NCBI GenBank assembly: GCA_030525785.1
Contig: JAUNEA010000001.1
Location: 62,001 to 126,000, forward strand
Direction of reading: 5' to 3'
DNA from: Cardiobacteriaceae bacterium
GTDB taxonomy: Bacteria; Pseudomonadota; Gammaproteobacteria; Cardiobacteriales; Cardiobacteriaceae
DNA length: 64,000 bases
Shown one piece after another: positions 8,836 through 30,670 of the stretch; position 1 is the stretch's first letter, and each line of letters begins with the position of its first letter. The notes under the pieces were generated by a model. It did not search any database, was not told where the DNA came from, and was given only the letters and a program-made list of their open reading frames with translations. A program made the position numbers and the translations under genes.

Positions 8836-9276
8836 ATGAATTTTCATGAAATTGATTTAGAACAAATAGATAAAGATACTTTGGAGCGCTTGGTTATGAT
8901 TTTGAACTTAAAACAACTGGATATTACCAACGAAAAATTTAAGGAAGAACTGCGCCTGATGCGTGAACGCGATGCTTTGGAACGCCAGCGTTATGAACAA
9001 GAGCGCGAGGAAGCCAAAGCACGTTATGAACAGGAGCGCGAGGAAGCCAAAGCACGTTATGAACAAGAACGCGAGGAAAGAAACAAACGCCATGAAGAGG
9101 AACGCCAGCGTTACGAGCGCGAACGCGAAGAATCCAAAGCCAGAAGTGAAGCAGAGCTTTTAAGATGGCGAGCGGAAACCCGTAAATACAACATGGAGGG
9201 CTTACTGTATCCCTTCATTGCGGGGGCAACGATTATGGGAGCATTTGCAGCCTTGCTGAATTATCTGCGTCCTTAA
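8836..9276 (+). CDS. Coiled-coil protein with C-terminal membrane anchor (accessory gene)
   Basis: The 146-residue product has a short acidic N-terminus, then a charged coiled coil (about residues 40-112) with the tandem repeat RYEQEREEAKA, then a C-terminal membrane segment (about residues 121-143). Ribosome site CGGAGGG. It sits on the plus strand between two minus-strand late genes. Its C-terminus (RKYNMEGLLYPFIAGA) is similar in layout to that of 14236-14526 (RKVRMDWLLAPILAAV), so the two are probably paralogs on opposite strands. The function is unknown. Exclusion or an anchoring role are guesses. Confidence 0.65.
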   Translation: MNFHEIDLEQIDKDTLERLVMILNLKQLDITNEKFKEELRLMRERDALERQRYEQEREEAKARYEQEREEAKARYEQEREERNKRHEEERQRYEREREESKARSEAELLRWRAETRKYNMEGLLYPFIAGATIMGAFAALLNYLRP

Positions 9277-9289
9277 TGCCGACTTTCTT

Positions 9290-9679
9290 TTACGCTAAAA
9301 CAGAGGCAGGAGCGATCGCAATTCCAGACAAAGCGCTTGGGCTGGGTTCAGGGCCGATTTTTAAAAGTCTTGGATTTTTCACCACTTCTTTCAAAAAGCT
9401 GATGGCTTGCTGGTAACGTGCCTCAACAACGGTCGTCACGCCATCTTGGTGCAAATAATACCGCGCCATATCGCACACCTTAATCTTCAAAATCGGTGCC
9501 GTATGCACGATGGCATCACTTAAACCCGCGGCGCGTAAATAGCTTTTGGCTTCTGCTTCAGCGTCTAAAATAGCAGCCTTTAACACGTCTTCGTTGATGT
9601 GTTGGTAATGCTCGCGATCGGTGAGACGGATTAATTCCGCCTCGCCAAAGCGCTTTGTCAAATCATCGCGCGTTATCAT
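9290..9679 (-). CDS. DUF1320 / Mu gp36-like head-tail connector protein
   Basis: The 129-residue product starts at ATG 9679 (MITRDDLTKRFGEAEL), overlapping the capsid stop (ATGA). The start MITRDDL..RFG, a central DAEAEAKSYL and the ICDMARYYL-type helix are typical of the DUF1320 family, placed directly after the major capsid gene in Mu-type phages. KRF in the N-terminus is encoded by a palindrome copy. Confidence 0.85.
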   Translation of the reverse strand: MITRDDLTKRFGEAELIRLTDREHYQHINEDVLKAAILDAEAEAKSYLRAAGLSDAIVHTAPILKIKVCDMARYYLHQDGVTTVVEARYQQAISFLKEVVKNPRLLKIGPEPSPSALSGIAIAPASVLA

Positions 9680-10662
9680 GTCATCACCAAATCCCACACC
9701 AAATCAGGGCGCTTCACAAGTGGCAAAGGGTTAGATTGGGCGTAAAGCTCAAATCCTGCTTCATGCTTGAGTTTTTCGCGAGAAGCGTAATAAGGAAGCG
9801 CTTTGGTGTTCACTGTGCTGCTCATATTGGCAGGCGCAAAGTATTCAGCAAATGCATCTTTAAGACCTTTGGGCAAGAAAATGGCTTGATTGTCTTCAAT
9901 TTTTAAACCGCTCTCGTATGCTGTGGCGTATTGCACAAACTCAATGCCCGCGGTTACGAATCGCCCGTCAAAGCCATCATGCAACGTTTTAGCGCCTTGA
10001 TAACGAAGATAAATATCAAGCATGGACTTGTGGGCAATCAGTTTTTCAAAAAAAGACGTTGAACACAAACACACCCAACCGCTCACGCTCTCCGCGCCCT
10101 TTTGACTGCGCAAAGCGCTTTTCACGCGCTCAAATTCAAGCGTTAAATTCGCGTTGGAGGCATGGTTGATAGCAGCATTTTGACGACTCAAACCAAAGCG
10201 CTTATAAAGATCAACCAATTCACGCCCATCAGCATCAACGATTTTGCCTTGCAAAGCGCCCAGCATTAAATGCTCACGCGTGTATTCAATATCAGCTTTC
10301 ATCGCCGAAAGCTTATCATTGACCAGCTCTGCAACCGTTTGCGCTTGATTATTTGAACCTTGCCACGCCTGCACATTTTGCACATCGTCTGCATAAATAA
10401 CGTCTGTTTTAGGCAAGTGCAACATATCAAAATTGCCGATATGGTTGTATTCAATATCAACGCCATGACCTGTTGCGCCACGAGGCTGGTGGGGAACCAA
10501 GTTTAAGGTCTGATTTTTCTCGCCAACGCGCACGAATGTTGTGGTTTGAGGTTTGGGCGTGAAAATGCCTAAACTGCGGATAACCGTAGGCGTTGTGGGG
10601 ATTTTGTTAATGGCTTCTGTCATCGGGCGGACGCCAAAATGACTTTCACTGGATAGAGGCAT
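9676..10662 (-). CDS. Major capsid protein, lambda gpE family
   Basis: The 328-residue product has an ATG with GGAG upstream. The C-terminal signature YAQSNPLPLVKRPDLV and the central REHLMLGALQGKIVDADG match the lambda E-type (HK97-fold) capsid family. Mu itself uses gpT, so this prophage combines a Mu transposition core with an E-type shell. Palindrome copies give KRFG and KSAL here. It forms the head with the protease/scaffold encoded upstream. Confidence 0.88.
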   Translation of the reverse strand: MPLSSESHFGVRPMTEAINKIPTTPTVIRSLGIFTPKPQTTTFVRVGEKNQTLNLVPHQPRGATGHGVDIEYNHIGNFDMLHLPKTDVIYADDVQNVQAWQGSNNQAQTVAELVNDKLSAMKADIEYTREHLMLGALQGKIVDADGRELVDLYKRFGLSRQNAAINHASNANLTLEFERVKSALRSQKGAESVSGWVCLCSTSFFEKLIAHKSMLDIYLRYQGAKTLHDGFDGRFVTAGIEFVQYATAYESGLKIEDNQAIFLPKGLKDAFAEYFAPANMSSTVNTKALPYYASREKLKHEAGFELYAQSNPLPLVKRPDLVWDLVMT

Positions 10663-10712: not shown

Positions 10713-11141
10713 CTACGGCAAGCTCGGCGGCTCTACCTGAGGTGGAGAGGGGGGCGATGGCTGAGGTAATGTTTGAACTTGCTCTAAGCGCTTTTGCAGT
10801 TTTTCAACGCCAATATAGGTAATGCCAAGCGCTGTGCCTGAGGCGAGCAGTTTTTGCAACAAATCCTGCGGTTGCTCTGCATTAAAATGGCCGTATTGGG
10901 GATTAAGCGAACCGTGCATTTTCAAATGCTCAGGCCTTAAATGCGAAAGATCGACCACACACGCGCTGGGCTGAATCAATACTTTGCCGTGTTCACTGTT
11001 AGACAAAGCCACCAGCAAATGCATTTCTTGATACGCCACCAGCTCGCCAATCTTCACGCCTTCCAACAAAGCGCTTTGACGTTGGTTGGGGTCTGATTCA
11101 GATTTGAGCAAATCACCAAGTGAGAGTTCTTTGTGAGTCAT
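10713..11141 (-). CDS. Putative head protein between protease and capsid genes
   Basis: The 142-residue product has GGAGG before ATG 11141 and ends in a Pro/Ser-rich tail (about residues 125-142). It occupies the place of a head decoration or accessory protein, just before the capsid gene, but I do not recognise the family. The first 74 bp of its coding region and its leader are duplicated at 11521-11612. Confidence 0.55.
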   Translation of the reverse strand: MTHKELSLGDLLKSESDPNQRQSALLEGVKIGELVAYQEMHLLVALSNSEHGKVLIQPSACVVDLSHLRPEHLKMHGSLNPQYGHFNAEQPQDLLQKLLASGTALGITYIGVEKLQKRLEQVQTLPQPSPPSPPQVEPPSLP

Positions 11142-11150
11142 CGCGCCTCC

Positions 11151-11282
11151 TTAAATGCCCATCAACGCCAAATCAAATAAATCCAAAACCTCAGGCGTGA
11201 GCTGGTGGGCTTGAATATTCTGCAAATGTGGGAAAATTTCTTTTATGATTTCAAGGTAATTCTGTTGATGATGTGAGGTCAT
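11151..11282 (-). CDS. Short paralog of the 11604-11951 protein
   Basis: The 43-residue product (NYLEIIKEIFPHLQ... ending DLALMGI) matches the two ends of the 115-residue protein at 11604-11951 (HYLKLLRELYPQL... ending LELALIGI), so it looks like an internally shortened copy. Ribosome site AAGGAACC. Its ATG overlaps the start codon of the divergent lipoprotein gene. The function is unknown. Confidence 0.55.
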   Translation of the reverse strand: MTSHHQQNYLEIIKEIFPHLQNIQAHQLTPEVLDLFDLALMGI

Positions 11283-11487
11283 GATGGTTCCTTTAAACGA
11301 TAAAATGAAACAGGGTTTATGGTTGTTGGGGGCGTTGTTTTTGCTGTTGGTGTTGGCGATGTGCGGCGAAAGGGACAACACGGACTACCAAGCGCTTTGC
11401 GCCGAAGGCAAAATCCAAACCGCCAACACCAACACCTACCGCCTGCGTTTTGAACTGCATTGCCCACCGCCAGAAAACGCTAAATAA
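11281..11487 (+). CDS. Small lipoprotein, copy 1 (accessory gene)
   Basis: The 68-residue product has a basic N-terminus, a hydrophobic stretch and a lipobox-like LAMC, followed by a short Cys-containing domain (CAEGKIQTANTNTYRL...C). The start may be 11281, 11284 or 11305; GAGGT suits 11284. It is antisense to the late operon and divergent from 11151-11282. It is similar to copy 2 at 11973-12158. Phage lipoproteins of this size often act in superinfection exclusion, which is a guess here. Confidence 0.6.
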   Translation: MMVPLNDKMKQGLWLLGALFLLLVLAMCGERDNTDYQALCAEGKIQTANTNTYRLRFELHCPPPENAK

Positions 11488-11612
11488 AAGCGCTTTGCTG
11501 GGCTTTATCGAGCGAGAGCAAAAGCGCTTTGGCGTTGGTTGGGGTCTGATTCAGATTGAAGCAAATCACCAAGTGAGAGTTCTTTGTGAGTCATCGCACC
11601 TCCTTAAATGCC
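11477..11612. repeat. Three-part mosaic duplication joined at palindromes
   Basis: Segment 11477-11497 equals 12148-12168 (21/21). Segment 11487-11532 equals 12296-12341 (46/46) from the scaffold coding region. Segment 11521-11612 matches 11068-11159 without gaps and with few mismatches (start of the head gene). The overlaps of neighbouring segments are exactly the AAAGCGCTTT copies at 11487 and 11521, so each seam is a palindrome. Confidence 0.9.
11505..11594 (-). pseudogene. Duplicated 5' end of the 10713-11141 gene
   Basis: It encodes MTHKELSLGDLLQSESDPNQ and nine more residues with the same ribosome site as the parent, then enters a fragment of the scaffold gene out of frame and stops. 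It is a by-product of the mosaic duplication. Confidence 0.8.
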
Positions 11613-11951
11613 GATTAAAGCCAACTCAAGGGCAGAACGCCATTTAAGAGCGATGGTCTGAGTTAAAAAGCGATAACGGTGATTGCTGTTAAGGATTTCA
11701 ACAATATCCAAAGTGGCTCCCAGAAGGGCTTTGGAGAAATCGTAAGGATTTTTGGCAAGAAACAGGTCAAGCGCTTTGCTGGCAAGATAAGCGGTTAAAG
11801 CGATTTGCTTGGTTGTTTCTATGAGTTCCCGCATCAAACCATCAAGCATATCGGCAACATCATGATTAATATGGTGAATTTGATAATGGTTGAGCTGTGG
11901 GTACAATTCTCGCAAAAGTTTAAGATAATGCTCTCGGCTTTCTGTGTTCAT
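11604..11951 (-). CDS. Phage protein of unknown function, divergent partner of a lipoprotein
   Basis: The 115-residue, mainly helical soluble product is placed between the protease gene and the duplicated head-gene fragment. Ribosome site CCTAGGAG. A 43-residue shortened copy lies at 11151-11282, and each copy is divergent from a small lipoprotein gene, so the pair (helical protein plus lipoprotein) has been duplicated as a unit. The function is unknown; one could guard or regulate the other. Confidence 0.6.
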   Translation of the reverse strand: MNTESREHYLKLLRELYPQLNHYQIHHINHDVADMLDGLMRELIETTKQIALTAYLASKALDLFLAKNPYDFSKALLGATLDIVEILNSNHRYRFLTQTIALKWRSALELALIGI

Positions 11952-11956
11952 AAAGT

Positions 11957-11966
11957 CTCCTAGGAG
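11957..11966. promoter_or_regulatory. Palindromic CTCCTAGGAG usable as ribosome site in both directions
   Basis: The perfect palindrome lies 5 bp from the minus-strand ATG (11951) and 6 bp from the plus-strand ATG (11973), providing AGGAG to both divergent genes. The 21-bp gap leaves no room for promoters between them. Confidence 0.6.
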
Positions 11967-11972
11967 GGAAGA

Positions 11973-12158
11973 ATGGAAAAATGGCTTAAGCCTTTGCTGT
12001 TGGCTTGGTTCTGCTTTGCTTTATTGCTATTGGCAACGTGTTCTTCTGTGAATCAAGAGAATGCTAAGCGCTTTGAAGAGGCGTGTGCCAAAGCGCACGA
12101 TGGCAAGATTTATACGCGATATGCTATTGGTGGCATTACTTGCCATGACGCTAAATAA
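11973..12158 (+). CDS. Small lipoprotein, copy 2 (accessory gene)
   Basis: The 61-residue product has a signal anchor (about residues 7-22) and lipobox-like LATC. The tail (CAKAHDGKIYTRYAIGGITCHDAK) parallels copy 1 (DGKI/EGKI, second Cys, ending AK). Ribosome site GGAGGG. Its stop overlaps the 3' end of the protease/scaffold gene. The two Cys residues of the mature domain could form a disulphide. Its role is probably in the cell envelope; superinfection exclusion is a hypothesis. Confidence 0.6.
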   Translation: MEKWLKPLLLAWFCFALLLLATCSSVNQENAKRFEEACAKAHDGKIYTRYAIGGITCHDAK

Positions 12159-13053
12159 AAGCGCTTTGTTTGGCGCGTTGTTCAGCATCTTGAAGCAAGG
12201 GATTGTCTGAAAGCTTGACATCAGGAGTATTCAAAGCGCTTTGGTGCGGTTCAAATAAGGCTTTCGGTGCTGCTTTGGGTGCTAAATCAGCGAGCAAAGC
12301 GCTTTGCTGGGCTTTATCGAGCGAGAGCAAAAGCGCTTTGGTGTTATCAGATAAGCCCAACCATTGCCCCTTGGCATCTTTTTGAAACCCACGTGCGGAA
12401 AGTTCAGCGTTTAGGTCTTGCTCACGTTTTGCTTGTTCTTTTTCTTGCTCAAGTTTTTGTTTTTCGGCGGCGAGGGTTTGGATTTGGTTTTTAAGATTGG
12501 CAATTTCAGCCAAGGCTTCTTCAAGATTCATCTGGTTTTCCTTTGGGTTAAAAGATTCTGATAAAACAACAGCATGGGTGTGATTATCCACACCTGTTGG
12601 CGTAAAACTCACTTCGCGCACCAAGCAGTTGCGATAAATAGCGATTTCGCCGTGTACGGTTTGACCGTTCACCAAAGCGCTTTGCCCTGCCTTGATTTCG
12701 TCAATGCGCGTGGGCTGAAGATGGGCAGAGAGTTGCCATGGGAAACCCTCGTCAGCATCTTGCGAGACCGTTTTGCCGTGTTCGTTAGAAAGCAGCGTGC
12801 CTGCGATGATTAAGCCGTCAGCGCCAAGCGTAAGACGCGCCACGCCTGCGCGCTTCTGGCGATCGTGTTCAATGAGTACGGGAATTTGTTCGGCAAACTG
12901 CAAAGCCGATAAATCAACAACGCAACGCTTGCCGTTGTGGACAAATGGCTTGCCCGAATGCGCCACGCCTGCAAAAGTGCGCGGGCTGGCGTTGGGGGTG
13001 CCTGCATCAAGTGCAGCGAGTTGTAACGACGCTGAAAGCAATAAAGAGGACAT
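12151..13053 (-). CDS. Phage head maturation protease with nested scaffold (Mu gpI-like)
   Basis: The 300-residue product begins at ATG 13053 with GGAG upstream; the frame is open further but without a ribosome site. Residues about 30-165 carry the Mu-I protease pattern (KRCVVDLSALQFAEQIPVL, then a helix ending in REVSFTPTGVDNHTHAVVL). From about residue 175 the protein is coiled coil (QTLAAEKQKLEQEKEQAKRE), typical of scaffolds. An in-frame ATG at 12531 with AAAGGA would give a 126-residue scaffold alone, like Mu Z inside I. Confidence 0.85.
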   Translation of the reverse strand: MSSLLLSASLQLAALDAGTPNASPRTFAGVAHSGKPFVHNGKRCVVDLSALQFAEQIPVLIEHDRQKRAGVARLTLGADGLIIAGTLLSNEHGKTVSQDADEGFPWQLSAHLQPTRIDEIKAGQSALVNGQTVHGEIAIYRNCLVREVSFTPTGVDNHTHAVVLSESFNPKENQMNLEEALAEIANLKNQIQTLAAEKQKLEQEKEQAKREQDLNAELSARGFQKDAKGQWLGLSDNTKALLLSLDKAQQSALLADLAPKAAPKALFEPHQSALNTPDVKLSDNPLLQDAEQRAKQSAFI

Positions 13054-13108
13054 GGCTTGGTCTCCAAAAACGACAAAGCGCATTGTGTGGCGATGGGGGG
13101 CAAGCCAT

Positions 13109-13116
13109 GAGTTGAT
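13109..13116 (-). promoter_or_regulatory. ATCAACTC box before the protease gene
   Basis: The minus-strand box lies 56 bp before ATG 13053 and left of the terminator at 13249-13276, so it could start the head-gene unit. Confidence 0.4.
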
Positions 13117-13248
13117 GACCAAACAAAGCGCTTTTTCATCACACCGTTCAAAATCACGCCCCCCCCTAAACCTTGTTTAAAACCTTTTTAAAATCGCCCC
13201 CATTTATTTAAAAATTTTGGACAAGGGGGTAAGCCTCACCCCAAAGCA

Positions 13249-13276
13249 AAAAACCGCCAAAAAGGCGGTTTTTTTT
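13249..13276. terminator. Bidirectional rho-independent terminator
   Basis: AAACCGCC-AAAAA-GGCGGTTT with a run of T on the plus strand and of A on the other side. It separates the leftward head unit from the plus-strand Panacea cassette and would stop leftward read-through from the terminase genes. Confidence 0.85.
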
Positions 13277-13339
13277 AACCCAATGCACCAAGCTGCTGTA
13301 CAATACGAACTTAAGAATCTCAACCTTAAAGGAAATGCT

Positions 13340-13810
13340 ATGACGTACCCCATTTATCGCGCGGTTGATGTAGCTGATGCTTTAGTGCGTTTGTCGTTGT
13401 CGGAACAAAAGCCTCTCACCAACCTTAAAATTCAAAAATTGACTTATATTGTCTACGGCTACTGGCTGGGGTTTACCAATTTTCAGTTGTTTCAAGATAC
13501 GGTTGAGGCTTGGCAATACGGTCCAGTGATTCCCGAGTTATATAAACAACTCGCACGGCATGGCGCAAACTTTATCCAAGAACCCATTTTGAAAAAAAAC
13601 ACGATTCCCAAAGATAGCGATGCTTACCAGCTGATTTGCGCAGTTTATAACAAATACAAAAATCTAGAGGCTTGGCAACTGGTTTATTTAACCCACCAGC
13701 CCAACACGCCCTGGAGTCAAACCGAACAAGCTTTACCCAATCGCAAAGCTGTTATTTCTCCTGATGTTATTCGCGACTACTATAAAACTCATATGATAAA
13801 ACCAGAATGA
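13340..13810 (+). CDS. Panacea-domain (DUF4065/SocA-like) antitoxin
   Basis: The 156-residue product has the core Panacea motifs: LTNLKIQKLTYIVYGYWLG (residues about 27-45) and EAWQYGPVIPELYKQL (about 57-72). The family serves as antitoxin to many unrelated toxins, membrane proteins among them, and as adaptor in SocAB-type proteolysis. I chose ATG 13340 because AAAGGA precedes it. The stop overlaps the next ATG (ATGA), so the downstream membrane protein is its likely partner. It is an accessory gene opposite to the late operon. Confidence 0.88.
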   Translation: MTYPIYRAVDVADALVRLSLSEQKPLTNLKIQKLTYIVYGYWLGFTNFQLFQDTVEAWQYGPVIPELYKQLARHGANFIQEPILKKNTIPKDSDAYQLICAVYNKYKNLEAWQLVYLTHQPNTPWSQTEQALPNRKAVISPDVIRDYYKTHMIKPE

Positions 13811-14181
13811 GAACATCATTTTCAGAACGTTTGGGCAGTCCAGAGTCCACAGAGTAGCCTGATTTAGCTTTACAACAAAGCTCTTTGCAAGCCGTTGAAG
13901 AAATGGAAATTGCGCTTAAAAAAGATGCTTTGGATATTCGTGAGCGTGAAAGTAGCCTTGCGCAAAATGAAGAGTTACACCAATTTCGCCAACGGGGCTA
14001 TTTAGCTTTGTTTGGTTTAATTGTGGCTTGGCTGGTCTTTATTGCTGTTGTTTTATATAGCTCGGGGCGTGGATTATTAGTATTGGCAAATAGCGTGTTA
14101 ATCACCTTACTCACCACTTCAACCGCAACCGTTTTAGGCATTTTTGCCATTGCTGCCAAGTGGTTATTTCCTAAAAATTAA
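13807..14181 (+). pseudogene. Coiled-coil, two-helix membrane protein partner of Panacea, amber at codon 17
   Basis: The frame starts in the ATGA overlap with the antitoxin gene, reads 16 codons, meets TAG at 13855-13857, then stays open in the same frame for 107 codons. The product would have a helical N-half (EEMEIALKKDALDIRERES) and two membrane helices (about residues 63-81 and 90-115). Panacea toxins include small membrane proteins, so this is a plausible toxin inactivated by a nonsense mutation. Re-initiation at TTG 13885 or ATG 13903 could still give the membrane part. Confidence 0.7.
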
Positions 14182-14222: not shown

Positions 14223-14297
14223 ATGAGTGACCAATTCAGCCCAACCACTTCAGTGCGGCAACTGTTGCACTGCTCGCGGCAACGGCTGCCAAGATAG
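14223..14297 (+). other. Short orphan frame with strong ribosome site
   Basis: GGGAGGATATCA precedes an ATG opening 24 codons (MSDQFSPTTSVRQLL...) that run into the 3' end of the opposite-strand gene. It may be the start of a lost third gene of the Panacea cassette, cut off by the inverted coiled-coil gene. Confidence 0.35.
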
Positions 14298-14526
14298 GCG
14301 CGAGTAACCAATCCATGCGAACCTTTCGGCTCTCGTTGCGCATTTTTTCTATTTCGTGTTCATGTCGCTCACGGCGCAAAGCCATTTCTTTTTCGTATCG
14401 CTCGCGTTCTTGTTCGTGGCGCTCACGCATAAGGCGCGTTTCCTCGTCCATTTTTCGCAACACAGCAATCATGTTCATTTTATTCAGCTCCTGTTCGGTC
14501 AAACCGCTCAAATCTTCCCAGTTCAT
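14236..14526 (-). CDS. Coiled-coil protein with C-terminal membrane segment
   Basis: The 96-residue product starts at ATG 14526 with GGAG upstream. Residues about 30-65 are a charged coiled coil (MRERHEQERERYEKEM), and residues about 72-94 a membrane helix. It shares layout and the basic-M-x-LL-x-P entry to the membrane segment with 8836-9276, so the two look like paralogs. It follows the terminase gene within 45 bp. The role is unknown. Confidence 0.6.
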   Translation of the reverse strand: MNWEDLSGLTEQELNKMNMIAVLRKMDEETRLMRERHEQERERYEKEMALRRERHEHEIEKMRNESRKVRMDWLLAPILAAVAASSATVAALKWLG

Positions 14527-19401: not shown

Positions 19402-19515
19402 GGAGGAGTTTGTCAACTGGGGACAAAGCGCTTTATGCCGTAGGCTTCAGTTTTTTGCAACAGGATAAACATGTGTCAAACAACCACCAAAACCAGCCTT
19501 TGATGGAGGCGCGTG

Positions 19516-20664
19516 ATGATTAAAAATGCCCCATCGCTTAAGGCGCTAACCACCAACCTTGATGCCAACCTAGACACCAATGATGGCAGCCTTGACGACT
19601 TAATCGCTGAGACAGGCAAAAGCGCGTTAGAAATCTTGAGCTTTTGCTTATCCGATGACGAGGTCGAGAGTTGCCGCGAGGATTTGTTTGCCGCGATGAT
19701 GGCACGTCCGTTTCGGATTTGGGGCGAGGGTGTGGACGAGGTGACGATTAACCGTCTGTACCGCATCATGCAAAGCGCTTTGCCTGTCTTTATCGATTTG
19801 GCGATTGTGTCCAAATTATACGGTTACGCGGTGGCGGAATACGTTTATCGACAAGATGCCGACGGTTTTTTGAGCCTCAAGCAAGTGCACTCCAAAGACG
19901 GCTTACTCGATCGCTACCAGCCCAAAGCCGATGGACTGTGGTATCAAGGTGATAACGGAGAGGAGCTTTTGGACCAACAACTTAAATTTTTGTTGCTGAC
20001 CCACAAAGCCACGCCATCGCGCCCCAAAGGCGAGATAAGCATTATCCGCCTCTATCCTGCCGTGCAATTGCGTAAACGAGTAATGGCGTACGCGGGGCAA
20101 TTTGTGCGCCGTTATGCGCAACCGTATGTGGTCGGCAAGCAAGCAGGCTTTGCACCGCTGACCGATTTTGTCAAGCAACTGTTTGGATTTTCCAACGGTG
20201 GCGCGGCAGCCATTGGCAAAGACGATGAGATAACACTGCACCAACTGCAAGGCGATGGCGAGGCATTTGCCAAACTTGAGCGCATTGCCAATGCGCGGAT
20301 ACAAAAGCTGTTGCTGGGGCGCGTCAAAACCTCCGACCTCCAAAACGCCAGCCGTGCCGCGCAAACGGTCGAAGAAGCCACGCGCAACGAGCGCATCGGC
20401 GGCTATCTCTTGATGTTGAGCAATGCCATGCAACACGCTATCGATGCGATGTTGCGCGTGAATCAGCTGTACGGCAAGCCTATTCACGCACCGCAGGGGG
20501 TGTGGTTTGAGTTTCAGACGCCAGCGGCGGTTGATATCGCACGCGCCGAGCGCGATGCCATCTATTTGCAAAATGGCGTGACTTTAACGCGCGAGTATTA
20601 TCAAAACATGGTGGGATTGGAAGAATCGCACTTTGAGATAAACGCCTCATCTGGCTTGGATTAA
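19516..20664 (+). CDS. Portal protein, DUF935 (Mu gp29-like), inverted
   Basis: The 382-residue product starts at ATG 19516, 7 bp after GGAGG. Segments FCLSDDEVESCREDLFAAMMARPFRIWG, RRYAQPYVVGKQAG and the C-terminal TREYYQNMVGLEE are typical of the DUF935 portal family. Only a few hundred bp of a gpF-like remnant follow. In related phages the portal follows the terminase on the same strand; here it is on the opposite strand and about 3.3 kb from the terminase, so the block has been inverted and moved. Confidence 0.9.
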   Translation: MIKNAPSLKALTTNLDANLDTNDGSLDDLIAETGKSALEILSFCLSDDEVESCREDLFAAMMARPFRIWGEGVDEVTINRLYRIMQSALPVFIDLAIVSKLYGYAVAEYVYRQDADGFLSLKQVHSKDGLLDRYQPKADGLWYQGDNGEELLDQQLKFLLLTHKATPSRPKGEISIIRLYPAVQLRKRVMAYAGQFVRRYAQPYVVGKQAGFAPLTDFVKQLFGFSNGGAAAIGKDDEITLHQLQGDGEAFAKLERIANARIQKLLLGRVKTSDLQNASRAAQTVEEATRNERIGGYLLMLSNAMQHAIDAMLRVNQLYGKPIHAPQGVWFEFQTPAAVDIARAERDAIYLQNGVTLTREYYQNMVGLEESHFEINASSGLD

Positions 20665-28502: not shown

Positions 28503-30464
28503 TTATGGCTGTTGATCGCTGGCAAAAAGTAATATTTCAGCCTCCTCTTTTACAGGGTTAAAGGTTTGCCAATCTAAGTCACCCACCAAAGCGCTTAAAT
28601 CTTCCTGTGCCTGCAGCTCAATCGCTGGTCGTAGCTCAGCTTTGGCTTTGCGTGCCTCATCTTCGAGGCGTTGCAACTTGCGTTCGGCGCGTTTTTGGCG
28701 TGATTGCTCAATCAGGGATTGGGCAAAAGCAGGTGCCGTGTTGCCGTTTAATTGCGCCTCACAGAGGTAGCGTCCATCTAAATCGCGGACAATCACCGTG
28801 CGTGGGTCGTGCTGATCCACCAGCATCAACACCTCTTGCTCGTTCAAAGCTTCCAAATGGTTGTGCCAGTAGTGCTGATTAAATAAGGTCAGCCAGCCAC
28901 GTTGTACCTTGCGTTTAAAGGCTGGGCGGAACAATTCTTTGGCTTCCCATTCGGATAACATCACAACATCATCGTCAGGATAAAGCGCTTTGAGTTCTTC
29001 GCGCCGCTGAAAAGGCGTGCATTTAAGCTCTGAATGCTGATGATGATGGTTGTAGTTATCCACAGATTCTTGAATCACGGTGAGTAACTCGCGCCATTTC
29101 GGTAGCTTGCCCAAAGCGCTTTGCTGTTTTAGTGTCAGCTCGGTGCGTTTTTCCGCAATCGCTTTGGATAACGACACTGTGGCTTGGCTGATTTGACGTA
29201 CAGCATCACGGTCTGCCCCTGTGCCGTAATAAGTCTGAAATCTTCTCGCGATCGGATAAGCCAAAGTTTGCATCACGCGCTCAATAATGCCGCGCCCCTG
29301 TGGGTTGCCCGGTATCCCCGTTTGATGGTCAATGCCCAAGCGGTGCAAAATCCCTGTTAAATCAGCGTCCAAAATTTTTGAAGTTTGACCAGCGCCATTG
29401 TCTGAATAGTAAAGCGCTGGAATGCCGTGATTTATCATAGCGTTACGCAAAGCATCAGCGACCGCAAAGGTATTTTCACTGTACGCCAAGCTCCAACCCA
29501 CAATGTAGCGACTCGCTGCGTCCATAATCAGCGTGAGTTCAGGCGTAAACGGCTGTCCGTGTTCGGGGTGTGCCACTTTCATCTTCAAACTATGACCATC
29601 GCCCACCCAGACATCATTATTATGTAGCACCGACCAATCGCGTTTGGTGTAGGTCGCCATCGCTCGCAAAGCGCTTTGCCCTTTACGCCCACGCTCGCGC
29701 ACCAAAGGTGGGATTTTGCGCATCACTTGACGCACCAAGTGTTCTGACGGCAAGGACTGATGCGGATATAGGCCTGCAAAACGCAAGGCAAAATTGCGAT
29801 AAGCCTCCGCCAAGGGAATCCCTGTAAATACCTGATAGCATTCCAAAAAATCTGGTAGCCAAAAATACTGCGACAAGGATTTTTTCGACCGACCACAACC
29901 TACAGGCGCAAAAGTTAAGGTGGTTTGCACCAAACCTTGACAGCGCTCCGACTGACAAAGCCATTCGTTCAACGTCCGCACGCCAATCCCATTGCCTGTA
30001 TTGCGTGCCAATGCCTTGGGCAAAGCCTGAGCAATGTTTTCAGGCAAGCGACCTTCGCGACTCTCGCGGCTCACACGCTCCAACGTCACACGACGTTTGT
30101 CGCCTGATTTTAAAAGCGCTTTGATGTAATCCACCACCAACAGTCGCGCCTCAACCGTCTCGCGCTGTTTATCGGTTAAAGCACTCATGCGCTTCGCCAC
30201 TTGCTTGTCCGCTGCAACCCTCTGCTCCCGTGCTGCTTTCGCCTCCGCCAAAGTGCTTTCTGCCAGCGTCAAAGCCTCTCGCTCCGCCAATGCACGCTGG
30301 ACTTCAAGGGGGAGGGAGGTAATCAAGTATTCGTACACGTTGCCTTCTGCATTGGGTTTTCTTCGTCGTATCCAGTTTTCGCGTTTTGCTTTTTGGTTAA
30401 TACCTTGTACTGTGCTTGGCAAAGTATTAACGCTCATCAATTCAACTATTGTTACCCATTTCAT
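28503..30464 (-). CDS. A: Mu-type DDE transposase A
   Basis: The 653-residue product is near Mu A length. It has an N-terminal Mu-type HTH (residues about 1-60), then end-binding domains, then the rve catalytic core with Asp289 (VGDGH), Asp355 (YSDNG) and Glu395 (IIERV), and a C-terminal B-interacting region. All three acidic residues are present. I chose ATG 30464 with GAGGTGG upstream; it overlaps the ner stop (TGATG). It should perform strand transfer for replicative transposition. Confidence 0.96.
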   Translation of the reverse strand: MKWVTIVELMSVNTLPSTVQGINQKAKRENWIRRRKPNAEGNVYEYLITSLPLEVQRALAEREALTLAESTLAEAKAAREQRVAADKQVAKRMSALTDKQRETVEARLLVVDYIKALLKSGDKRRVTLERVSRESREGRLPENIAQALPKALARNTGNGIGVRTLNEWLCQSERCQGLVQTTLTFAPVGCGRSKKSLSQYFWLPDFLECYQVFTGIPLAEAYRNFALRFAGLYPHQSLPSEHLVRQVMRKIPPLVRERGRKGQSALRAMATYTKRDWSVLHNNDVWVGDGHSLKMKVAHPEHGQPFTPELTLIMDAASRYIVGWSLAYSENTFAVADALRNAMINHGIPALYYSDNGAGQTSKILDADLTGILHRLGIDHQTGIPGNPQGRGIIERVMQTLAYPIARRFQTYYGTGADRDAVRQISQATVSLSKAIAEKRTELTLKQQSALGKLPKWRELLTVIQESVDNYNHHHQHSELKCTPFQRREELKALYPDDDVVMLSEWEAKELFRPAFKRKVQRGWLTLFNQHYWHNHLEALNEQEVLMLVDQHDPRTVIVRDLDGRYLCEAQLNGNTAPAFAQSLIEQSRQKRAERKLQRLEDEARKAKAELRPAIELQAQEDLSALVGDLDWQTFNPVKEEAEILLFASDQQP

Positions 30465-30670
30465 CACGCCACCTCGTAACGTTCTGCCCAAATTTCGCAA
30501 GGCTGCACCCCAATGGCTTCTGCAATAATGCGCTCTCCTTTCGGATAACGCATGCGCAAAGCATTCTTAAGTGTCGCGGGTGCCAATCCCGCTTGCACAC
30601 TCAAGGCACTTAACGTTAATCCTCGTTCGGCAAGCTCGTATTTAATCCGTGCGTTGCTCCAATTTTTCAT
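30464..30670 (-). CDS. ner: Ner-like regulator
   Basis: The 68-residue HTH protein (IKYELAERGLTLSALSVQAGLAPATLKNAL) is typical of the Ner/Nlp family that turns down early transcription and the repressor gene in Mu. ATG 30670 has GGAGG upstream. It is the first gene of the early operon, divergent from the repressor gene. Confidence 0.92.
   Translation of the reverse strand: MKNWSNARIKYELAERGLTLSALSVQAGLAPATLKNALRMRYPKGERIIAEAIGVQPCEIWAERYEVA

What the first reader, a model, noticed from the sequence alone, without database searches (positions are those of the whole stretch)
11151..12158. Duplicated divergent pair: helical protein plus lipoprotein
Two units share the plan: a minus-strand helical protein (43 and 115 residues, both ending LALxGI) starting back to back with a plus-strand lipoprotein (68 and 61 residues, LAMC/LATC lipobox, later Cys, ending AK). 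In the first the two ATGs overlap; in the second a palindromic CTCCTAGGAG supplies both ribosome sites. Paired duplication implies joint function, perhaps exclusion with immunity, or a toxin pair.
Basis: partly seen in the sequence, partly recalled or inferred. Interest (0 to 1): 0.62.

Follow-up and report, generated by a model that had tools for sequence, protein, structure and literature searches.

The report
Phage-borne toxin-like protein with membrane partner
A prophage carries two copies, one of them broken, of a small all-helical protein whose relatives form the tail end of secreted toxin-like proteins and usually sit beside a tiny membrane protein that probably protects the cell.

Summary
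The ORFs, overlapping starts and palindromic ribosome site are as described. The units are true paralogues (59% DNA identity) between 93-98% identical flanks, a duplication apparently made through the species' AAAGCGCTTTG repeats. The 115-residue helical protein belongs to phrog_4513 (unknown function). A profile built without this genome finds it at 2.8e-15 and the 43-residue copy at 7e-6; the latter has lost its core. The same profile finds the domain (7e-14) as the C-terminus of a secreted 329-residue protein elsewhere in this genome. That locus is a tandem pair: one copy is broken, both small 2-TM neighbours are kept, and a third 2-TM copy lies between. In 22 of 28 loci examined (prophages, a 4.65-kb plasmid, chromosomes) a small membrane protein follows the helical gene, against 27 of 193 control genes. 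Two members are predicted to have five helices. This fits a toxin domain with a membrane immunity protein, like CDI ionophores or MafB cassettes; no toxicity has been tested. The window's partner is not a convincing lipoprotein (LATC/LAMC; a lone paralogue lacks the Cys); it looks like one TM helix with a two-Cys periplasmic tail. That it is the immunity protein is a guess. The exact pair occurs nowhere else searched.

The parts
11604..11951 (-). Helical protein 2, 115 aa, intact phrog_4513-family member; predicted five helices
   Evidence: hmmscan phrog_4513 3.4e-6; profile without own-genome rows 2.8e-15; AlphaFold2 pLDDT 75, helices 3-16, 30-50, 53-64, 69-89, 91-112; BFVD match TM 0.85
11973..12158 (+). 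Small membrane-anchored protein 2, 61 aa: one TM segment, then a tail with Cys38 and Cys57; candidate partner or immunity protein
   Evidence: hydropathy 2.36; relative at C11 58% identical, pN/pS 0.39
11957..11966 (.). Palindrome CTCCTAGGAG giving both divergent genes a ribosome site
   Evidence: sequence
11151..11282 (-). Helical protein 1, 43 aa: N-terminal ~37 residues plus last 6 of the same family, core deleted; probably a remnant
   Evidence: profile 7.2e-6 over positions 2-42; alignment
11281..11487 (+). Small membrane-anchored protein 1, 68 aa; start ATG overlaps that of helical protein 1; ORF intact
   Evidence: hydropathy 2.57; colinear with lipo2 at DNA level
11521..11629 (.). 93%-identical copy of 11068-11176: relic of the 5' end of the gene at 10713-11141 plus the 3' end of the helical gene
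   Evidence: direct repeat D1
11068..11176 (.). Partner copy of that 109-nt repeat
   Evidence: direct repeat D1
11487..11536 (.). 98%-identical copy of 12296-12345 from the 3' part of the protease gene; meets the other relic at an AAAGCGCTTTG repeat
   Evidence: direct repeat D5
12151..13122 (-). Head maturation protease, upstream neighbour in the late operon
   Evidence: phrog_3244 1.5e-25
10713..11141 (-). Probable head decoration protein (by position between protease and capsid), downstream neighbour
   Evidence: position only; same order annotated in related phages; no family match

Best explanation
The locus is an accessory ('moron') cassette in the late operon of a Mu-like prophage. Shown: the helical protein is a phrog_4513-family domain (five helices predicted); the family also occurs as the C-terminal domain of a secreted protein in this genome; and members are usually followed by a small hydrophobic membrane protein. 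Inferred: the domain is a membrane-acting toxin (an ionophore-like bundle) and the small membrane protein is its immunity partner. In this prophage the usual co-directional 2-TM gene is missing. A divergent one-TM protein with a two-Cys periplasmic tail takes its place and would shield the lysogen. A tandem duplication through AAAGCGCTTTG repeats made two units. The helical gene of unit 1 then lost its core, leaving its small partner as an orphan, as seen in the secreted locus on contig C18. How the standalone domain would reach a target (release at lysis, or action inside the host on superinfection or prophage loss) is unknown.
For: Family: 11 of 11 rows hit phrog_4513; unbiased profile; reversed sequences gave nothing. 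Secreted form: C18 329-aa protein with a signal peptide (by eye) and this domain at its end, 7e-14, in a tandem pair whose first copy has a TGA and a truncated C-terminus while its 75-aa membrane neighbour is intact, plus an extra 2-TM copy. Partner gene: the script found a small hydrophobic ORF behind 23 of 28 family loci; I discount one that is antisense to another gene, giving 22 of 28, against 27 of 193 control ORFs. Broken helical gene with open partner: C18 copy 1, C9:296k, window unit 1, G397, two G732 loci, G698:C3. Orphan partner copies also in G736. Mobility: on a 4,650-bp Neisseria musculi plasmid, in Mu-like phages between Mor and protease, and behind a phage-repressor-like gene. 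Five helices predicted for two members; CDI ionophore domains are five-helix bundles with 72-100-residue two-helix membrane immunity proteins (PMC11630599: abstract and section 6 read).
Against: No toxicity or protection is shown anywhere in this work. The glycine zipper shared by CDI ionophores is absent in 18 of 18 rows, one of them the core-deleted unit 1 and one a truncated copy. The domain is not strongly hydrophobic (best 17-residue mean 0.8-1.7 in the 16 members measured before the script stopped). No PDB fold matched (Foldseek best E 1.4 and 0.43; VIA-align best Z 4.3 and 3.5). The window's small protein resembles none of the usual 2-TM partners and lies on the opposite strand. Phage copies have no signal peptide. 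The secreted N-domain was found only in this genome among 188 searched, so swapping of tails, the hallmark of polymorphic toxins, is not demonstrated. Relics are found mainly by their conserved C-terminal end, so the apparent retention of partners may be partly a detection bias; in G701 the partner itself looks split. Exceptions without a co-directional 2-TM gene: window x2, G759, G754 (convergent ~115-aa lipoprotein), G763 (convergent 3-TM), G080.
Confidence: 0.42

Rival explanations
1. Superinfection-exclusion moron: the helical protein and a small envelope protein act together in the lysogen to block entry or assembly of related phages; variable partners reflect variable targets.
For: Found in prophages, and in G736 right behind a CI/LexA-like phage repressor (by eye) on the same strand, where lysogenic expression is expected; small membrane proteins are typical of exclusion; two diverged copies in one prophage.
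Against: No PADLOC match for any of 11 rows. The same domain at the end of a secreted protein, a plasmid copy and chromosomal copies are not expected. In Mu-like phages the pair lies between Mor and the protease, a lytic operon.
Confidence: 0.2
2. Incidental neighbours: the helical protein is a phage moron of its own and the divergent small membrane gene is an unrelated passenger, duplicated only because both lay on one segment.
For: The small protein has a solitary relative at C11. No helical relative elsewhere that I examined has this small protein. Unit 1 keeps the small ORF without an intact helical gene. One segmental duplication explains the pairing.
Against: Relatives of the helical gene recurrently have some small membrane or lipoprotein gene beside them (22 of 28 downstream; lipoproteins beside L047, L052, L053, L054). 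The shared palindromic ribosome site couples the two genes closely.
Confidence: 0.23
3. Intracellular toxin-antitoxin or abortive-infection module: the toxin stays in the producing cell and the membrane partner is an antitoxin that keeps the prophage or plasmid in place.
For: Standalone members lack signal peptides; one is on a small plasmid; some CDI ionophores are toxic from the cytosol (PMC11630599 section 13).
Against: A secreted version exists; orphan partner copies fit immunity against others better than addiction.
Confidence: 0.15

Closest known systems
phrog_4513 (PHROGs v4, unknown function)
   Same: The 115-aa protein is a member by profile, with the C-terminal motif of (R/K)(S/T) then LxGI/L
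   Different: PHROG gives no function; this work links the family to a secreted toxin-like protein and to small membrane partner genes. The window copy has a divergent one-TM neighbour instead of a downstream 2-TM gene
CDI type-10 alpha-helical ionophore domains with two-TM CdiI (PMC11630599; abstract, sections 6, 13 and part of 14 read)
   Same: Small five-helix bundle as a C-terminal domain; small hydrophobic two-helix partner encoded just downstream; strong sequence divergence of both
   Different: No GxxxGxxxG in 18 of 18 rows; not on CdiA; often standalone on phages and a plasmid; window partner has one TM only; activity untested
Maf (MafB/MafI) polymorphic toxins and silent mafB-CT cassettes (PMC4287609; passages read)
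   Same: Signal peptide, N-domain, then toxic C-terminal domain, small immunity gene after it, extra C-terminal and immunity cassettes nearby (the C18 locus)
   Different: The N-domain is not DUF1020 (no Pfam match above cut-off); the phage units have no N-domain at all
Imm17 / Imm-CdiI two-TM immunity proteins (PMC3482391; passages read)
   Same: Two TM helices, small, next to a toxin cassette, as in most relatives here
   Different: None of the partners tested matched any Pfam family above its cut-off; the window's own partner has one TM and a periplasmic tail

Membership tests
phrog_4513 | Profile match over the domain | tested here: met
   Unit 2 3.4e-6; unbiased profile 2.8e-15 over positions 3-120 of 120
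phrog_4513 | Full-length domain in unit 1 | tested here: not met
   Only positions 2-42 match plus the last six residues; core missing
CDI type-10 ionophore | Five-helix bundle | tested here: met
   Predicted only: five helices in unit 2 and in a Neisseria phage member; not compared with a CDI ionophore model
CDI type-10 ionophore | Glycine zipper GxxxGxxxG | tested here: not met
   0 of 18 rows
CDI type-10 ionophore | C-terminus of CdiA, after VENN | tested here: not met
   Window units are standalone; the C18 carrier is 329 aa and shows no VENN in the printed sequence
CDI type-10 ionophore | 72-100-aa two-TM immunity protein next to it | tested here: not met
   Not in the window: no small hydrophobic ORF downstream of either unit; in relatives such genes are usual (about 49-118 aa)
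CDI type-10 ionophore | Dissipates membrane potential | not testable with these tools
   needs bench work
Polymorphic toxin (MafB-like) | Signal peptide and N-domain followed by this C-terminal domain and an immunity gene | tested here: inconclusive
   C18 has the plan but the window units do not; tail swapping not seen (N-domain in 1 of 188 genomes, the own one)
MafB | DUF1020 (PF06255) | tested here: not met
   Pfam scan of the C18 protein, best hits far below cut-off
Bacterial lipoprotein | Lipobox with G, A or S before the Cys (rule recalled) | tested here: not met
   LATC and LAMC; C11 paralogue reads LTYS
Known anti-phage defence systems (PADLOC-DB 2.0.0) | Profile match | tested here: not met
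   0 families for 11 members; helical proteins only, the small partners were not scanned

The most novel reading that the evidence does not exclude
phrog_4513 is an unrecognised family of small membrane-depolarising toxin domains that moves among Mu-like phages, plasmids and secreted host proteins, with a small membrane protector; in this prophage the protector has been replaced by a different kind, a one-TM protein with a periplasmic disulfide tail, read from a shared palindromic ribosome site.
Probability: 0.3. Interest if true: 0.68.

Novelty: new variant of a known kind. Interest (0 to 1): 0.5.

Why it matters
It gives a testable function (toxin domain with membrane immunity) to a phage protein family that has none. 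It also shows one domain both as a standalone gene in phage late operons and as the end of a secreted host protein, which would let one trace how toxin cassettes pass between phages and their hosts.

Tried and rejected
Lipoprotein reading: rejected on the lipobox and on the C11 paralogue. Rz/Rz1 spanin for the small protein: only phrog_6073 at 0.031, not followed. Homology of the small proteins to the 2-TM partners or to the lipoproteins beside other members: none seen by eye, not tested formally. Structural homologues in the PDB: none significant; Bcl-2-like folds top the second Foldseek list at E 0.43 with TM 0.24 and are not evidence; sequence search of PDB chains with the A2 profile gave, besides two designed proteins at 1e-5 with no stretch passing on its own, only chance-level rows. 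Hits to DapD in G690-G693 are false positives, as are, by eye, the phosphopantetheinyl-transferase-like hit in G005 and the OmpA/Pal-like hits in G462 and G570. Promoter and terminator scan: no excess over shuffles. No relatives of the window proteins by single-sequence search in phages, viral contigs or genome contigs (one search gave one chance row). Paper searches on exclusion, morons, phrog_4513 and prophage polymorphic toxins showed nothing on this family in the listings; listings only, not read.

Counts and rows dropped: the 28 loci leave out near-identical copies (L042-L046, L058, L060, L061, L085) and weak or heavily interrupted hits (L067, L078, L079, L082, L087, L088, L091). Several of the 28 are close relatives, so they are not independent. 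The 193 controls are longest open frames, not curated genes. In three loci (L012, L072, L073) the script picked a longer ORF than the one I take as the partner. In Neisseriaceae 21 of 83 genomes match at E 1e-3, 4 of them DapD, so at most 17 of 83, including relics.

Full report
Setting. The window holds a Mu-like transposable prophage: Mu transposase 28503-30500, AAA/MuB-like ATPase, Gam, Mor, Mu portal and tape measure, with head genes on the minus strand: protease 12151-13122 (phrog_3244) and capsid 9676-10662 (Phage_cap_E). In related phages protease, decoration protein and capsid are adjacent. Here two divergent gene pairs lie between the protease and the probable decoration gene.

The observation. 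Coordinates, lengths, overlapping ATGs and the palindrome are right. The two units are paralogous DNA (59% over 340 columns, E 2e-11). Between and around them lie 93%- and 98%-identical copies of the neighbouring genes' ends (11521-11629 = 11068-11176; 11487-11536 = 12296-12345), which meet at AAAGCGCTTTG. This is the footprint of a tandem duplication of decoration-5'/unit/protease-3'. The 10-mer AAGCGCTTTG occurs 252 times in the window against 0.8 expected. Why the flanks are far more alike than the units (93% against 59%) is open: fast divergence of the units, or crossing-over between prophages carrying different units.

The helical protein. It hits phrog_4513 (3.4e-6). Relatives were collected from a Helicobacter-hosted prophage record, Neisseria Mu-like phages, a 4,650-bp Neisseria musculi plasmid and several chromosomes. 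All 11 rows of one alignment hit phrog_4513. A profile from 14 relatives, with none of this genome's own sequences, was run over 143,779 bases of this genome. It finds unit 2 (2.8e-15), the C-terminus of a 329-aa protein on C18 (7e-14), a truncated copy at C9:296k (2.8e-10; a tRNA-Arg lies nearby), unit 1 (7e-6) and the broken neighbour on C18 (2e-4), with nothing in reversed sequence. Unit 1 keeps only the first ~37 and last six residues. AlphaFold2 gives five helices for unit 2 (pLDDT 75) and for a Neisseria phage member (pLDDT 83, pTM 0.80). The only significant fold match is a phage protein of unknown function (BFVD A0A8S5T565, TM 0.85).

The secreted relative. On C18 two tandem genes encode a signal peptide (by eye), a ~170-aa N-domain and this domain. 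The second is intact; the first has a TGA and lacks most of the domain. Each is followed by a small membrane protein (75 and 76 aa), and another copy of the 76-aa protein lies between. This is the plan of polymorphic toxins with immunity genes. Among 188 genomes searched the N-domain was found in this one only. In G080 a gene for a secreted-looking 193-aa protein runs straight into the helical gene.

The partner. Of 28 family loci, a script found a small hydrophobic co-directional ORF within 150 nt in 23; I discount one antisense to a lipoprotein gene, leaving 22, against 27 of 193 long ORFs taken as controls. In seven loci the helical gene is broken while the small partner is open (C18 copy 1, C9:296k, window unit 1, G397, two in G732, G698:C3); in G701 the partner looks split. 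The exceptions without such a gene include both window units. Small lipoproteins stand beside the gene in the plasmid and G736 (upstream) and in G759 and G754 (convergent). The window's small proteins match nothing known; the only relative is a solitary gene on C11 under purifying selection (58% identity, pN/pS 0.39), lacking the supposed lipid-Cys but keeping the two tail Cys.

Mechanism. By analogy with CDI ionophores (five-helix domains, small two-helix immunity proteins; PMC11630599) and MafB cassettes (PMC4287609 passages), I infer a membrane-acting toxin domain with a membrane protector. Against strict membership: no glycine zipper in 18 of 18 rows, no CdiA carrier, and a one-TM partner in the window. 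The toxin role is inferred; that the window's small protein is the protector is the weakest step.

Verdict. Real, partly decayed duplication of an accessory cassette; a new variant of a known kind; function testable with simple expression assays.

Noticed in passing
window 1-64000: AAGCGCTTTG (often as the palindrome CAAAGCGCTTTG) occurs 252 times on both strands against 0.8 expected; it also sits at the duplication joints.
   Followed up: partly
window 13217-13810 and 13885-14181, + strand: Panacea/SocA-like antitoxin (Pfam 8.6e-15; NCBIfam SocA below cut-off) followed by a 98-aa membrane ORF: possibly a Panacea-type toxin-antitoxin pair inside the same late operon.
   Followed up: no
window 8836-9276 (+) and 14236-14526 (-): Two coiled-coil proteins with a C-terminal TM segment look like paralogues, again on opposite strands within the head and tail genes.
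   Followed up: no
window 19513-20664, + strand: The Mu-type portal gene is on the opposite strand to the other phage structural genes identified.
   Followed up: no
L099 5191-7901 (own genome, C18): Tandem secreted proteins ending in the phrog_4513 domain, each with a small membrane protein; first copy broken.
   Followed up: partly
L092 9251-11894 (G736): Small island between an IS3-like element and lpxB (names by eye): repressor, lipoprotein, helical gene, 2-TM gene, with further 2-TM copies.
   Followed up: partly
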